A stretch of 64,000 bases of DNA, from positions 1-64,000 of the forward strand of contig JAJYDX010000006.1 of NCBI GenBank assembly GCA_021777135.1, given 5' to 3'. Origin of the DNA: a bacterium (GTDB lineage: Bacteria; SZUA-79; Acidulodesulfobacterales; Acidulodesulfobacteraceae). The notes beneath the pieces are model-generated. The model was not told where the DNA came from, ran no database searches, and worked only from the letters and a program-made list of their open reading frames with translations. Every line of letters starts with the position of its first letter. The first letter of the stretch is position 1. Shown in pieces: positions 25,584 through 38,895 of this stretch. Both the position numbers and the translations under genes were made by a program.

Positions 25584-26096
25584 TTAATTACCGCTGCCCA
25601 TTTTATTAAAATTAAAACTCTTTTTATAAATAACAAGTCCGTGTAAAGTCAATGGAAGGTTATATAAATGCTCTGTTGCCGCATTAGGCAGTCCTTTTTT
25701 TACGGGTTGCGGAGGCACTTTTAAGGCCGCAAAACCTGCTGGGATATTTTTCCTCTTCACTCTTAAAATAGGACCGTGTTTCAAAGGCTGCGGTATTTCT
25801 CTTTGCGGCGTGATGCTGAACATTCCGTTTATTTTTTTGGAATTAAACCATATGCCTTTTGACCAAAAATAATAAGCTTTATGATAATAATAATAAACTT
25901 TTTGATTTTTTTTATTTACGTATGCTTCCAGATTTTTGGATATTTTAAGCATTATAAACTTCTTGCCTTCGGTGTAGTATTTCTTAGATGATTTTCCTGG
26001 CAATTTTGCGACCGTTTCAGAATGCGCTGATAAGGCGGCCGATAAAACAAAAAAAAGCGCCAAAACGGTTAATAGCATTAAAAATTTTCTCGACAT
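25584..26096 (-). CDS. Exported protein of unknown function
   Basis: This 170-residue protein has a clear signal peptide (basic start, hydrophobic LMLLTVLALFFVLSAALSA, cleavage after SAHS or nearby). The mature part is basic, with a Tyr-rich region VYYYYHKAYYFWSKGIWF around residues 66-85, reminiscent of small periplasmic or outer-membrane-associated DUF6515-like proteins. The C-terminal half is rich in Pro and Lys. It lies upstream of def on the same strand with a 22-bp gap, but a functional link is not evident. Confidence 0.6.
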   Translation of the reverse strand: MSRKFLMLLTVLALFFVLSAALSAHSETVAKLPGKSSKKYYTEGKKFIMLKISKNLEAYVNKKNQKVYYYYHKAYYFWSKGIWFNSKKINGMFSITPQREIPQPLKHGPILRVKRKNIPAGFAALKVPPQPVKKGLPNAATEHLYNLPLTLHGLVIYKKSFNFNKMGSGN

Positions 26097-26272
26097 ATAA
26101 TGCCTCTTTTTTATGTGTTTTTTTAATTTAAAACATTTATTTTATTATACATTATTAATGGCAAAAATCAATTTTTTATTTGAATTTGTCAAGATTTTTC
26201 TTGACTTTATAGCCATATAAGATATATTAATACTAGTTAAGGTTTTATTCTAATATTAAAAGGAGATGTTCA

Positions 26273-26710
26273 ATGTTTAAGAAAATTCTATGCCCGGTAG
26301 ATTTCAGCGACACTTCTATGAGCGCCGCTAATAACGCTATAAATTTTGCTTCCGAAGCTAAAGCGGAATTAACATTTATTCACATTATAGACATTCAAGC
26401 GTTACAAAACATAGGCGACCTATCTGGAGGCGGAATAAACGATTTAAATCTTCTAATAGAAGAAGAGAAACCTATCTTGAGCAAACTTAAAGACGAGTGC
26501 GAAAAAAAAGGCATTAAGGTTAAAACAGTGCTGACACACGGAATGCCGATTAACGTTATATTGGAAACCATAAAAGAAGACGGACACGACCTTATAATAA
26601 TGGGAACCCACGGAAAAACAGGTTTAACAAGATTAGTATTGGGCTCAATAGCCGAAAACGTGGTAAGAAGATCGGATATTCCCGTTTTGCTATACCATTG
26701 CAAATGTTAG
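26273..26710 (+). CDS. Universal stress protein family (UspA)
   Basis: This 145-residue Usp protein begins FKKILCPVDFSDTSMSA and has the complete ATP-binding signature IIMGTHGKTGLTRLVLGSIA with G-x2-G-x9-G(S), so nucleotide binding is likely, unlike the degenerate copy at 18010. A good ribosome site (AAAGGAGATG) precedes the ATG. It stands alone and is convergent with the selenoprotein gene, 28 bp apart. Confidence 0.92.
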   Translation: MFKKILCPVDFSDTSMSAANNAINFASEAKAELTFIHIIDIQALQNIGDLSGGGINDLNLLIEEEKPILSKLKDECEKKGIKVKTVLTHGMPINVILETIKEDGHDLIIMGTHGKTGLTRLVLGSIAENVVRRSDIPVLLYHCKC

Positions 26711-26738
26711 TGTTATATTAAAAAATATGGATAAGCGG

Positions 26739-27389
26739 TTATTCTTGAGAATATCCTTCCATAATTTTACCTAAAAACACGGCTTCCGGAACTGCTCCCA
26801 CTACTTCGGTGTGTTCGTTAATTACCGTTTTTGGAACGCTGAAAACCGAATATCTGTCGGAAAGATTATGAAATTCCTGAATTTCTATAATATCCGAAGT
26901 AATATTTTCGTTTTCTATCGCAAAATTGTGTGCAAGAACCGCCGCCGGCGGACAATGAGGTCAGGTAGGCGTTACAAAGACTTGAATATTTAAAGGCTTC
27001 GTAATGCTCTTAAGCTTTTCTATAGTTTTTTCGGAAAGACCGGTTTTTTTAGTTGAAACATTAATTATGGCATGAATCAGGGTCATAAATTCATGTCCTG
27101 CCGGCATTCCGTAATATCGGACGCCGTAATCTTTGTCGCCTGCTATTGCGATAGCAGGGGTTCTTTTTATATTGTACTGTTTTACTTTGTCCGTATCTTT
27201 ATCGAAATCGTATTCCTCTAAGGTGATTTTATCGCTAAGACCTGATAATTCTACTAATATATCTTTTGCTTCCTTACAATATAAACAGCCGTCTTCAGAT
27301 TTAAAAAATATAATCTTAATATTGTTTTCAAGCTTATCGCTAAAATCTTTCCTTAAAGATTCGGCATCCTGCTCGCTAAGTAAAGGCAT
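26739..27389 (-). CDS. Two-domain glutaredoxin-like protein with in-frame UGA, probable selenoprotein
   Basis: Two thioredoxin folds follow each other, as in protein disulfide oxidoreductases. The N-terminal fold has GCLYC and ends with a KRTPAIAI cis-Pro region. The C-terminal fold has VFVTPT-[UGA]-PHCPPAAVLAH, so UGA (26961-26963) takes the place of the first Cys of the usual CPxC motif. The frame stays open for 73 more codons to TAA at 26739 and contains the expected VPKTVIN cis-Pro motif. ATG at 27389 follows AAGGAT. A stem can form just after UGA. This implies SelA/SelB/SelD elsewhere in the genome. Confidence 0.85.
26922..26963 (-). promoter_or_regulatory. Candidate bacterial SECIS element
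   Basis: Directly after the UGA, ATTGT (minus strand, from 26956) can pair with ACAAT (ending at 26925), enclosing a GC-rich CCGCC/GGCGG segment and a loop. This is the expected position for a bacterial SECIS hairpin bound by SelB. The exact fold was judged by eye. Confidence 0.5.
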
Positions 27390-27468
27390 ACTTTTATCCT
27401 TTTTTATAATTTTGCATTTTATCCTTTTTTTATTATATAATAGTTCATAATTTAAATTCAACAAAAAT

Positions 27469-28161
27469 ATGCAGCCTAAACTTCATAATTATTGTATAGA
27501 TAAAACTTTTGAGCTTTTGTATAACGACTCAAGAAGCGACGTTTTAAAAACTATTTTCGACCCGCGCATTTCTGCAGTATCCGTTGAAGAAAGAATTAAG
27601 CTTATGCAGCACGGTTCTTACATAATTGACAGGCTTGCAATAAAAAAAATGAGGATACATTGGTTTGGAGGACATTATCTCTATCCTCATTCACATGCCG
27701 GCTATATAAGAGGATTTTCTGACGCCGGCACTAAATGCGCTCAGCTTTTTAATATTGCAGTTAAGGATTGGGAATATGGCAGAATTAAAAAATCGATGAT
27801 TGCTCTTGGCGGAGCCGTTCATTTAGTTCAGGACCTTTGCATACCTTTTCATACGACTAATATGGCACTTAAAAAGCATATACTATTTGAAAGATGGATG
27901 TCATCACATTATTTAGACGTCAATTTAAAATTAGAAAACGGCACATATAAATTCAAGCCGTTAAAAGGGCATTATAAGGATATGCATCCATTCGGATGGG
28001 TGGATTATAACGCGCATAATTCTTCGATGTTTCTACCTGAATTGCTTTACGCAAAAACTAAAGCTGAATATTTTAACGCTATGAATAGGATATTGCCGGA
28101 GGCCGTAAAAACTTCTGCAGGCTTTCTGGAATTGTTTGCCAAAAAAGTCCGAAAACAATAA
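27469..28161 (+). CDS. Zinc-dependent phospholipase C-like protein
   Basis: This 230-residue all-helical protein resembles the phospholipase C/P1 nuclease superfamily. ALGGAVHLVQDLCIPFHTTN (about residues 105-124) is the central zinc-binding H-x-x-QD-x-x-x-PFH motif, and HWFGGHYLYPHSHAGYI and NAHNSSMF supply other His/Asn residues. There is no signal peptide, so it may be cytoplasmic, unlike secreted enzymes. It is divergent from the selenoprotein gene and 7 bp ahead of the CobD-like gene, with which it is probably cotranscribed. Confidence 0.7.
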   Translation: MQPKLHNYCIDKTFELLYNDSRSDVLKTIFDPRISAVSVEERIKLMQHGSYIIDRLAIKKMRIHWFGGHYLYPHSHAGYIRGFSDAGTKCAQLFNIAVKDWEYGRIKKSMIALGGAVHLVQDLCIPFHTTNMALKKHILFERWMSSHYLDVNLKLENGTYKFKPLKGHYKDMHPFGWVDYNAHNSSMFLPELLYAKTKAEYFNAMNRILPEAVKTSAGFLELFAKKVRKQ

Positions 28162-28168
28162 AAAAATA

Positions 28169-29290
28169 ATGAAGTCTATTTTTAACCTCGAAGACCATGG
28201 GGGCGGCGTAATGCCGTACGGATATAAAAGCGGGATAATCGACTTTTCCGCTAATATAAACCCCATTGGATTAAGCAAAAAAGCAGCAAAAATTTTTAAA
28301 TACCCGGGCAGATTAAAATACTTCACGGAAAATTATCCTGAAATCTATCCCGAATCATTTATAAAAAACTTATCGGATTACCACTCCGCAGATAAAAAAT
28401 GCATATTCCCCGGTGCGGGAGCCGCCGACCTTTTATTTAACACGGTATGCATGTTGAATCCTAATAAAATTATTATCGTCGAACCTTCTTTTTTAGAATA
28501 TGAAAGAGCTGCGTCGCTTCGTACGAAAAAATCAGATATTATTCATATAAATACATATTTTTCGGATAATTTTGAGCTGAAAGGAAAAAGTCTGTCAAAT
28601 CTTTTAGAAAATATTAAAAAGCTAGATAAAAACGACTTAATTTTTATCGCAACTCCTTCTAACCCTGCAGGCGCCGTAACGCCATTAAATACTATTATTA
28701 AAATATTGGGGCTTGCTAAAACAAAAAAAGCATTTTTAGTTTTAGACGAATCTTTTATGGATTTTTGTGAAGAATTTTCTTCTAAAACGTTAATCGCAGA
28801 CGGCGGAAGGTTTGACAATTTAATAATAATTAGGTCTATGACAAAGTTTTTTGCTATGCCGGGGCAAAGACTGGGATATATATTAGCAAGCCATAAAATT
28901 ATTAAAAAATTCGCGGAATACTCGGCGCCGTGGAAAATAACCTCTTTAGCCTCTGAAATAGCTTCAGAATCTTTAAAAGACAGAGATTATATAACAAAGT
29001 CGCGTATTTTATTGAACGGATTAAAAAATAATCTTCTGACGGAGCTTAAGAAATTAAAATTTTTAGAAATCATACCCGGTAAAGCAAATTTTTTTCTAAT
29101 AAAAATAAAAACAGCATCACCAGAGACATTTAACGCCTTAGATTTAAAAAACAGCCTTCACGAGTCCGGAATTTTAATAAGATATTGCGGATATTACAGG
29201 GGGTTGGACGATAAATATTTCAGGATAGCCGTAAGAAAAAAATACGAAAACGATTTTTTAATAAAAAAATTAAAAGAAATTATTTTTTAG
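28169..29290 (+). CDS. PLP-dependent aminotransferase, CobD/HisC type
   Basis: This fold-type I enzyme starts LEDHGGGVMPYGY followed by IIDFSANINPIGLSKKA, the N-terminal pattern of threonine-phosphate decarboxylase (CobD) and histidinol-phosphate aminotransferase. Also seen are PGAGAADLLF, IATPSNPAGAV, LVLDESFMDF and SMTKFFAMPGQRLGY with the PLP Lys. The HGG start favours CobD of cobalamin synthesis over HisC, but no other cob gene is nearby. ATG at 28169 is chosen over a TTG at 28136 that lies inside the upstream gene. Confidence 0.8.
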   Translation: MKSIFNLEDHGGGVMPYGYKSGIIDFSANINPIGLSKKAAKIFKYPGRLKYFTENYPEIYPESFIKNLSDYHSADKKCIFPGAGAADLLFNTVCMLNPNKIIIVEPSFLEYERAASLRTKKSDIIHINTYFSDNFELKGKSLSNLLENIKKLDKNDLIFIATPSNPAGAVTPLNTIIKILGLAKTKKAFLVLDESFMDFCEEFSSKTLIADGGRFDNLIIIRSMTKFFAMPGQRLGYILASHKIIKKFAEYSAPWKITSLASEIASESLKDRDYITKSRILLNGLKNNLLTELKKLKFLEIIPGKANFFLIKIKTASPETFNALDLKNSLHESGILIRYCGYYRGLDDKYFRIAVRKKYENDFLIKKLKEIIF

Positions 29291-35993: not shown

Positions 35994-37001
35994 TTAGCTA
36001 AATATATCTTCTACATTTCCTGATTTCTTAATAATTCTCAATATGCAACTAACTGAAAGATTAGGATGGGTTTCTTTTTCTGCTTGAAATTCCCGCTTTA
36101 ACTTATCAATAGATAAAATAGTGTCATTCTTCTTTTTACTATGATAATCAAGTTTATTCCTGATTAACCATATCAAGTCTTCGGTATTTAACTTTGGATA
36201 TTTAGATTTTAATATCTTAAAATTTACATTAAAAGAATAAAAATACGAAGTGATAGAATAAATTCTAGTAAATCCATATATAAAGGAAGCCAATCCAATG
36301 ATCAGCGCAAATAGATAAATCTCTATTGCAAATCCCCAAAGTGATTTATTATGATGCAATATATATTTATTTGTATAATCATAAACATTATCAGCGTTTG
36401 GAAATATAAGTCCAAATAAAATATCAAATATATAAGCACCTACAAATATTATTAAATGATGTATAATTTCCTTTAATTCTTTTAATAATTCTTTCTTATC
36501 ATATAATACACCCCAATCATCCACCGGTTTATATTGCTCGTTTATATTTATAATACCCTGTGGAATAAATCCTACAAATAATGCTCCAATTGTGGCTAAA
36601 GACATCAATATGGTTCTGATTGTTGAAAAAGTAATAGATTTAGAAATAGGTGTAAGGAATATGTAAAATATATATGTAATAATTATTATTCCTACTATGG
36701 TTAAGCGCGGATTTGTTTTCCAAAGATTAGATAAGGTTTTCCATATTGCAACAATAGAAATAATAAAAAATAAAGCAATAATATCTATATAAAGCCATAG
36801 TAATATCAATAGAATGAACTCAAAGTTTACTTTTAAACCAAAATGAATGAAAATAACAGCTACTTCAATTAATAGTAAGACAAATGATATTAATATTATC
36901 TCTTTTATTCTTTTTTCTTTAAAAACCGCCCATAACCAACTTTTGCCAGCTTTTATTTTCTCGTAAAAATTGTAAATTGATTTAATTTTCATATGTTTCA
37001 T
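35994..37001 (-). CDS. Multi-spanning membrane protein of unknown function
   Basis: This 335-residue protein has about seven hydrophobic segments: two near residues 33-85, one near 100, one near 115-135, one near 140-155, one near 185-205 and one near 240-265. A soluble C-terminal tail of about 70 residues follows (NTEDLIWLIRNKLDY, then a Lys-rich region). I do not recognise the family. It follows the TIR operon on the same strand after a 574-bp gap, so it may be a separate unit. A membrane effector linked to TIR signalling is possible but unproven. Confidence 0.55.
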   Translation of the reverse strand: MKHMKIKSIYNFYEKIKAGKSWLWAVFKEKRIKEIILISFVLLLIEVAVIFIHFGLKVNFEFILLILLWLYIDIIALFFIISIVAIWKTLSNLWKTNPRLTIVGIIIITYIFYIFLTPISKSITFSTIRTILMSLATIGALFVGFIPQGIININEQYKPVDDWGVLYDKKELLKELKEIIHHLIIFVGAYIFDILFGLIFPNADNVYDYTNKYILHHNKSLWGFAIEIYLFALIIGLASFIYGFTRIYSITSYFYSFNVNFKILKSKYPKLNTEDLIWLIRNKLDYHSKKKNDTILSIDKLKREFQAEKETHPNLSVSCILRIIKKSGNVEDIFS

Positions 37002-37575
37002 ATGATTTACCTATTTTTTATTAAAAGATTATAATAATAATTCCATATTTAGATATAAATTTAACATATTTTATAAAAAAATCAATAAATTTTTAAATAT
37101 TCTCATAATAGTTGTGTTTTAATTTTTCGTAAATAAAAAATATTTAAAAAATAATAATCCTTTAATTTAGCATTAGACATATAAAAAAACCTTCTAATAT
37201 GTTATAATTATTGTGTCTTAAGACAATAAACAAACATAACAAGGAGGTTAATCGATAAGAAAAATTATATCATAATTAAAGGCGAAAGAAACACTTTTGC
37301 ATTCGCAGGCCAAGGCCGCCTTATTGTTAAATTGCAAGTAAATTCACCCGGCAAGTTGCGTTTATTTTCACCCGCTCTTGGATTAATTTAAAAAACTAAT
37401 CAAGATAAAAATAAATAATATGGATTCTCTTTTATATTTGGAGCAAAGAACTCTAATTGTGTTGGTGGATCTGAAAAATTTTGGAAAGATTGTTCCATGA
37501 TATTAATAAATATAGCTTTAATTTAAGATTCTGGACGAGTGTTGCAAACTATTTGCAACGATTTTATAAAACTAT
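37002..37575. other. Intergenic region with a possible decayed short gene
   Basis: On the plus strand a strong ribosome site (AAGGAGG, 37241-37247) is followed at 37251-37391 by 46 open codons (IDKKNYIIIKGERNTFAFAG and onward to a TAA), but the first codon is ATC, not a normal start. A promoter-like TATAATTATT lies upstream (near 37203). This could be a gene that lost its start codon, or a leader. The remainder is AT-rich with nothing recognised. Confidence 0.3.
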
Positions 37576-38895
37576 TTAAATAACTGGAAGTTTGCCTTCA
37601 ATTAAATCATTAGCAAATTCTTTCATTTTTCTACAATCTTCTTTTATATATTCCCATTCATCTACCTCTTTTTTAACCTCGAATTGATTACTAGCATAAT
37701 CATCTGGATACCATATATTGTGCCTCTCTTTTGTAATGATATCAACCGGAAGACGGGTTGCTTCCCTAAATTGCTTAATACTATCATCCGACAACTCATA
37801 CCCCCAAAAGGGAATCCTAGCTGCTTCACAAAAACAAATTAACTCCTTAAGCTCGCTTCTACATTTATGATAATTCCATCTTTCTATCTCCAATACTTCA
37901 TACGTATAATATTCGACACCTTCAATAGTTTTATTTCTAAATTTAATTATCACGCCTATGGGCTCTTCTCGCCATTTACCACGGTCATTATCTAACTTAG
38001 CTTGTTCAAAATCAGCACTCATTCGTCTTATAAACATTACCTCTGTATGTAAATTATCTTTATAATTATATTTAAAAAGCTTTCTTCCAATATTATGAAT
38101 ATTTTTATACCAACGAACTTCTAAACCAAATGTATAGCAGAAATCACTTTTAAAAGATAGCCATTCATATGTTACACGGAAAGTTTCAGCCAATGTTCTT
38201 AGTAAGTTATAATCTATATTATCTATAAATTCTTTACTATCAAATAATGAAGAAATTTTAAAATTTTCTTGCCCTATAAAACTGCCCATATTAAATAAAT
38301 CTATCCCATGCGATTGGAATAAGTTTATAATTCTTGCTTTAATACCGTCAATATAATGTTTTAAAGTTTCCATTTTAATAGCATCCTTTTCAATTTCTAT
38401 ATTGCCTTTGCTATAATTTTTCTGATTATTTTTACTATCATGTAAAGATTTTTTAATTTTAAAAATTGTATTAGGCAAATCTTTATTGTCTCTTGAATCT
38501 AAATTTGAACGAATATTTGATAAAAATTTGAATTTTTTATTAGAAATTAATTCCTTATTGGATATATCATATGGAATTATAAAAATTTTGAAATTTTCAT
38601 CATTAAGACTTTGTTCGTAAGCTAATTCAGCCTCCATTTTAATCCATTCCCTTCTGCAATTAAGATAATTAGGAGTGATTAACAATATAGCAGAATTAGA
38701 TTCTTTTAATAATCCAAAGTTTATCTTTGTTATAATATTATCTCCATAGTTAATTCGGTCTTCATCACGCCAAATATCTAAACTAGGCTCGCCATACCCG
38801 CTTGACGTTAGTTCTTTATAGATACGTTCAACAAGGCGGAAATCCTCATTTACATAAGATATAAAAGAATCAAATTTTTTTATACTTTCATTCAT
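37576..38895 (-). CDS. TIR-domain protein with unknown C-terminal region
   Basis: Residues 6-135 form a TIR domain: FDSFISYVNEDFRLVERIY, LDIWRDEDRINYGDNI and SAILLITPNYLNCRREW, with Trp84 and a putative catalytic Glu88 (WIKMEAE). TIR enzymes of this kind cleave NAD or make cyclic ADP-ribose signals. Residues 165-439 match nothing I know; they include WYKNIHNIGRKLFKYNY, a basic stretch EVMFIRRMSADFE and a Trp-rich end. Its ATG overlaps the stop of the TIR-TIR-SLOG gene by 8 bp, so it is the last gene of the operon and may be an effector or second signal maker. Confidence 0.8.
   Translation of the reverse strand: MNESIKKFDSFISYVNEDFRLVERIYKELTSSGYGEPSLDIWRDEDRINYGDNIITKINFGLLKESNSAILLITPNYLNCRREWIKMEAELAYEQSLNDENFKIFIIPYDISNKELISNKKFKFLSNIRSNLDSRDNKDLPNTIFKIKKSLHDSKNNQKNYSKGNIEIEKDAIKMETLKHYIDGIKARIINLFQSHGIDLFNMGSFIGQENFKISSLFDSKEFIDNIDYNLLRTLAETFRVTYEWLSFKSDFCYTFGLEVRWYKNIHNIGRKLFKYNYKDNLHTEVMFIRRMSADFEQAKLDNDRGKWREEPIGVIIKFRNKTIEGVEYYTYEVLEIERWNYHKCRSELKELICFCEAARIPFWGYELSDDSIKQFREATRLPVDIITKERHNIWYPDDYASNQFEVKKEVDEWEYIKEDCRKMKEFANDLIEGKLPVI

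What the first reader, a model, noticed from the sequence alone, without database searches (positions are those of the whole stretch)
26739..27389. Probable selenoprotein: UGA replaces the first Cys of the C-terminal CPxC motif
Seen: the frame VFVTPT-UGA-PHCPPAAVLAH stays open for 73 codons after UGA and encodes a full second thioredoxin fold with its cis-Pro motif. Known: Sec often replaces a redox Cys in such motifs and bacterial SECIS hairpins sit directly after UGA; a stem can be drawn there. Standard gene callers would truncate the gene at 26961.
Basis: partly seen in the sequence, partly recalled or inferred. Interest (0 to 1): 0.75.

Follow-up and report, generated by a model that had tools for sequence, protein, structure and literature searches.

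The report
Selenium-containing protein disulfide oxidoreductase gene
This gene of an acid-mine-drainage bacterium almost certainly reads a UGA 'stop' codon as selenocysteine in the active site of a two-domain disulfide-exchange enzyme; the kind of protein is already catalogued, so it is a well-supported but ordinary new member that standard gene finders would cut short.

Summary
On the minus strand, 27389..26739 encodes a 216-residue two-thioredoxin-fold protein in which UGA (26963-26961) stands for the first Cys of the C-terminal motif (TPT-U-PHC-PP), with 73 sense codons following. All 23 full-length homologues in the lineage (Candidatus Acidulodesulfobacterales/SZUA-79) keep exactly this in-frame UGA. 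More distant homologues have Cys or UGA in the same column. The host genome carries SelA, SelB, tRNA-Sec(UCA), and SelD, which itself has an in-frame UGA. Five codons just after the UGA (TGT CCG CCG GCG GCG) show no synonymous variation in 23 genomes, although synonymous sites elsewhere vary freely; they can form a CCGCC/GGCGG hairpin with a GGC loop, where a bacterial SECIS is expected. [quoted passage not shown] It is therefore a new member of a known selenoprotein family, most likely a cytosolic thiol-disulfide exchanger fed by thioredoxin reductase. Loose ends: the UGA-to-loop spacing (14 nt) is slightly under the published 16-37 nt, and the hairpin's energy alone is not statistically unusual.

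The parts
26739..27389 (-). Sec-containing protein disulfide oxidoreductase (PDO), 216 aa, ATG start at 27389, TAA stop at 26741-26739
   Evidence: Read-through translation; TIGR02187 274 bits against a cut-off of 185; solved relatives 1a8l, 1j08, 2ywm
26961..26963 (-). UGA codon read as selenocysteine (residue 143), first position of the C-terminal UPHC motif
   Evidence: TGA in 23/23 full-length lineage orthologues; aligned Cys in Cys-form homologues
26939..26951 (-). Predicted apical hairpin of the SECIS element, CCGCC-GGC-GGCGG, GGC loop
   Evidence: RNA fold -7.7 kcal/mol of the first 28 nt; the same hairpin in several relatives
26940..26954 (-). Codons +3 to +7 after UGA (TGT CCG CCG GCG GCG), identical in 23 genomes
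   Evidence: No synonymous variation, whereas 20 other invariant four-fold-degenerate residues within -60..+70 codons all vary; Fisher p 9.4e-5 for the four four-fold codons
27276..27287 (-). N-terminal active site CLYC (Cys35, Cys38)
   Evidence: Both Cys invariant in alignment A1; corresponds to CQYC of P. furiosus PDO
27396..27401 (-). Shine-Dalgarno-like AAGGAT upstream of the ATG
   Evidence: Read directly from the sequence

Best explanation
The gene encodes a selenoprotein form of the two-domain protein disulfide oxidoreductase. Shown by sequence: the conserved in-frame UGA, the complete family fold on both sides of it, the Sec machinery in the genome, and a constrained hairpin-forming segment directly downstream. 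Inferred: SelB with Sec-tRNA and GTP binds the hairpin about 15 nt after the UGA and inserts Sec at residue 143. The UPHC selenol then acts as the fast nucleophile in thiol-disulfide exchange, with Cys146 as the resolving residue. The N-terminal CLYC site relays electrons, and thioredoxin reductase (present in the genome) regenerates the enzyme. Probable clients are peroxiredoxins or mis-oxidised cytosolic proteins.
For: UGA in 23/23 full-length orthologues at 67-87% protein identity. Purifying selection after the UGA: dN 0.06-0.17 against dS 0.5-2. Synonymous freeze in codons +3..+7. SelA 550 bits, SelB 303 bits, SelD 360 bits with its own in-frame UGA (SAHGUGCK), tRNA-Sec 69.5 bits with anticodon UCA. 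Same-column Sec or Cys in other phyla; the five other Sec-form genomes tested all have tRNA-Sec. The family is named PDO_seleno_TRX and is listed as a UxxC selenoprotein (PMC13188914; PMC9312934; PMC1794560). Thioredoxin reductase in the genome, 369 bits; in Sulfolobus thioredoxin reductase reduces PDO, and the C-terminal site is the main thiol-transferase site (PMC7465337).
Against: No protein-level evidence. The hairpin energy is matched or beaten by 12-19% of synonymous recodings and a longer fragment folds no better than dinucleotide shuffles. Loop spacing is 14 nt, below the 16-37 nt of the published model. Stem pairs never vary within the lineage, so there is no covariation support there. 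tRNA-Sec did not pass the cut-off in G012, G021 and G010, which have UGA-form PDO (draft assemblies, and not all first-look candidates were scored in G012 and G021). The reductase partner and clients are inferred.
Confidence: 0.96

Rival explanations
1. The UGA is a sequencing or assembly error, or a premature stop in a decaying Cys-type PDO gene.
For: The window comes from a draft assembly (92 contigs), and TGC/TGT to TGA is one base change.
Against: The same TGA is present in 23 genomes of five genera, with selection maintained after it.
Confidence: 0.005
2. UGA is a real stop giving a one-domain protein, and the downstream part is expressed separately or is a relic.
For: UGA is used as an ordinary stop by 4 of 10 neighbouring ORFs.
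Against: No copy in the lineage has another stop or a gap at this site; the active-site Cys partner and cis-Pro motif after it are conserved; Cys homologues are continuous.
Confidence: 0.01
3. UGA is read as another amino acid (Trp or Cys) by a changed code or near-cognate tRNA, not as Sec.
For: Cys would restore the usual CPxC motif.
Against: UGA ends ordinary genes here; complete Sec machinery and a UGA-containing selD are present; the family is known in a Sec form.
Confidence: 0.02

Closest known systems
[quoted passage not shown]
   Same: Two thioredoxin folds, UxxC motif, full-length match above the curated cut-off
   Different: Different phylum; its own SECIS sequence; here the Sec form was found in every full-length copy examined in the lineage
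Cys-type archaeal/bacterial PDO (P. furiosus 1a8l, 2ayt/2ywm, Sulfolobus SsPDO)
   Same: Two-domain fold, CxYC and CPxC motifs, thiol-disulfide exchange
   Different: Cys instead of Sec; a review calls PDOs exclusive to thermophiles, whereas this lineage is known from acid mine drainage
AhpF-like fusions with an N-terminal PDO module (TIGR03143)
   Same: Homologous N-terminal part; some Nitrospirota copies have TGA at the same active-site column (L186, L189)
   Different: Those frames are about 540-550 aa, consistent with a fused reductase module; this protein is free-standing

Membership tests
TIGR02187 protein disulfide oxidoreductase | Full-length match above the curated cut-off | tested here: met
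   274.1 bits against 185, positions 2-208 of 209
TIGR02187 protein disulfide oxidoreductase | Two redox motifs, one per thioredoxin fold | tested here: met
   C35-LY-C38 and U143-PH-C146
TIGR02187 protein disulfide oxidoreductase | Disulfide reductase/isomerase activity | not testable with these tools
   Needs biochemistry
Bacterial selenoprotein | In-frame UGA aligned with Cys of homologues and conserved in orthologues | tested here: met
   23/23 TGA in the lineage; Cys or TGA elsewhere
Bacterial selenoprotein | selA, selB, selC, selD in the genome | tested here: met
[quoted passage not shown]
   5 bp, GGC loop, -7.7 kcal/mol
Bacterial selenoprotein | 16-37 nt between UGA and apical loop | tested here: inconclusive
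   14 nt counted from the A of UGA (17 nt counted from its U); the review states that a subset of elements departs from the model
Bacterial selenoprotein | Selenium in the protein | not testable with these tools
   Needs mass spectrometry or 75Se labelling

The most novel reading that the evidence does not exclude
The lineage has fixed a Sec-type PDO with a short-spaced (14 nt), GGC-triloop SECIS preceded by an invariant U, slightly outside the published bacterial SECIS limits, as a general disulfide reductase of acid-mine-drainage bacteria rather than a thermophile protein-folding factor.
Probability: 0.3. Interest if true: 0.4.

Novelty: new member of a known kind. Interest (0 to 1): 0.25.

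Why it matters
It corrects gene models: in 23 genomes an ordinary gene caller would truncate this enzyme before its main active site. It shows that the whole lineage examined keeps a selenium-dependent PDO, and adds a case of repeated Cys/Sec exchange in one family (about five label changes on the tree, 4-6 in bootstraps). It also gives a clean test case for SECIS spacing.

Tried and rejected
Rfam scan of 26000-28200: no match. Folding of a 73-nt fragment gave no unusual stability (z 0.34), and 12-19% of synonymous recodings are as stable, so hairpin energy is not used as proof; codon-level constraint is. PF12390, a short N-terminal model, missed SelA but the full SelA model found it. A possible conserved redox operon was tested: the neighbours (universal stress protein, deformylase, fmt, uvrC/uvrB and others; names from my own reading of the ORFs) are conserved by descent in the genus but not linked to PDO outside the lineage. 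The two full-length formate dehydrogenase matches have no in-frame UGA, so they do not explain the Sec machinery. Other UGA read-throughs in the window look like chance, or adjacent genes in one frame. The plasmid search gave only distant AhpF/PDO relatives.

Full report
Observation. The gene lies on the minus strand. Translating 27386..26739 with TGA as U gives one continuous protein with a single TGA; with its ATG at 27389 it has 216 residues, Sec at position 143 (codon 26963-26961), 73 codons after it, and TAA at 26741-26739. An ordinary ORF list ends the gene at 26961. A TTG start further upstream (27464) is possible, but the ATG at 27389 has an AAGGAT Shine-Dalgarno-like sequence and starts the part conserved in relatives.

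Identity. The read-through protein scores 274 bits against NCBIfam TIGR02187, 'protein disulfide oxidoreductase', short name PDO_seleno_TRX, cut-off 185, over the full model. Pfam sees thioredoxin-type folds in both halves. The best solved relative is P. furiosus PDO (1a8l, 174 bits), where the aligned motif is CPYC. The protein thus has an N-terminal CLYC and a C-terminal UPHC site.

Conservation. A search of the 30 held genomes of the order found 23 full-length copies, every one with exactly one internal TGA, and in all 23 it is the same codon. One further copy (G009) is cut by its contig end before that site. dN after the UGA is as low as before it, so the downstream part is under protein-level selection. 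The loci in GTDB records include 'Candidatus Acididesulfobacter diazotrophicus' and 'SZUA-79', which places the genome in or near Candidatus Acidulodesulfobacterales of acid mine drainage (PMC6776010). The gene neighbourhood is conserved in the genus and partly in the family, showing vertical inheritance.

Wider family. Among homologues of other phyla most have Cys in the column, and five have TGA (Nitrospirae L064, Zixibacteria L082, Anaerolineae L087, an unidentified bacterium L102, Ignavibacterium L107). On a maximum-likelihood tree the Sec label needs five changes (4-6 in bootstraps; at least two forced by well-supported branches), so Sec and Cys were exchanged more than once. All five of those genomes have a tRNA-Sec above the cut-off; of the 13 Cys-form genomes tested ten do and three do not. 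In Nitrospirota two AhpF-type proteins also have TGA at this column (L186, L189).

Machinery. The host genome has SelA (549.6 bits), SelB (303 bits), SelD (360 bits, with its own in-frame UGA in SAHGUGCK) and tRNA-Sec (69.5 bits; ARAGORN anticodon UCA). UGA also ends four of ten ordinary neighbouring genes, so it is not reassigned wholesale.

SECIS. Codons +3 to +7 (TGT CCG CCG GCG GCG) are identical in 23 genomes, although CCG makes up about 30% of Pro codons and GCG about 20% of Ala codons. All 20 other invariant four-fold-degenerate residues within -60..+70 codons vary (Fisher p 9.4e-5; a rough figure, because related genomes are not independent and the segment was chosen after inspection). 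The segment can fold as CCGCC-GGC-GGCGG with an invariant U just 5' of the stem, at -7.7 kcal/mol for the first 28 nt. This meets the published bacterial limits for stem, loop, loop G and energy, but the spacing is 14 nt against 16-37 (PMC13188914). Energy alone is weak evidence: 12-19% of synonymous recodings do as well. The outside Sec forms also fold into hairpins after their UGA.

Mechanism. In Sulfolobus, NADPH and thioredoxin reductase reduce PDO, which serves peroxiredoxins, and the C-terminal site dominates thiol-transferase activity (PMC7465337). This genome has a thioredoxin reductase (369 bits), and peroxiredoxin and thioredoxin reductase genes are expressed in this order (PMC6776010). 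Most likely Sec143 speeds the C-terminal exchange reaction, with Cys146 resolving. This step is inference.

Novelty. The Sec form of this family was reported in 2006 as 'homolog of AhpF, amino-terminal domain' in Carboxydothermus and Symbiobacterium (PMC1794560), is listed with UxxC in later reviews, and was found in Asgard archaea (PMC11227280). I found no report for this lineage in the papers held; the one paper on the order read here does not mention selenoproteins. Verdict: real, well supported, a new member of a known kind.

Noticed in passing
L042:1483-2538 (G000:C70, near 36904-37830): selD of this genome is itself a selenoprotein gene (SAHGUGCK), about 4 kb from selA on the same contig.
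   Followed up: partly
L186 and L189 (Nitrospirota, AhpF-like proteins): Long PDO-containing proteins with in-frame TGA at the same active-site column (SPT-U-PYCP, TPT-U-PICP).
   Followed up: partly
G000:C54:115895-117922 and G000:C92:5973-8000: Two formate dehydrogenase alpha-type genes without in-frame UGA, although FdhA is the commonest bacterial selenoprotein.
   Followed up: no
   Followed up: no
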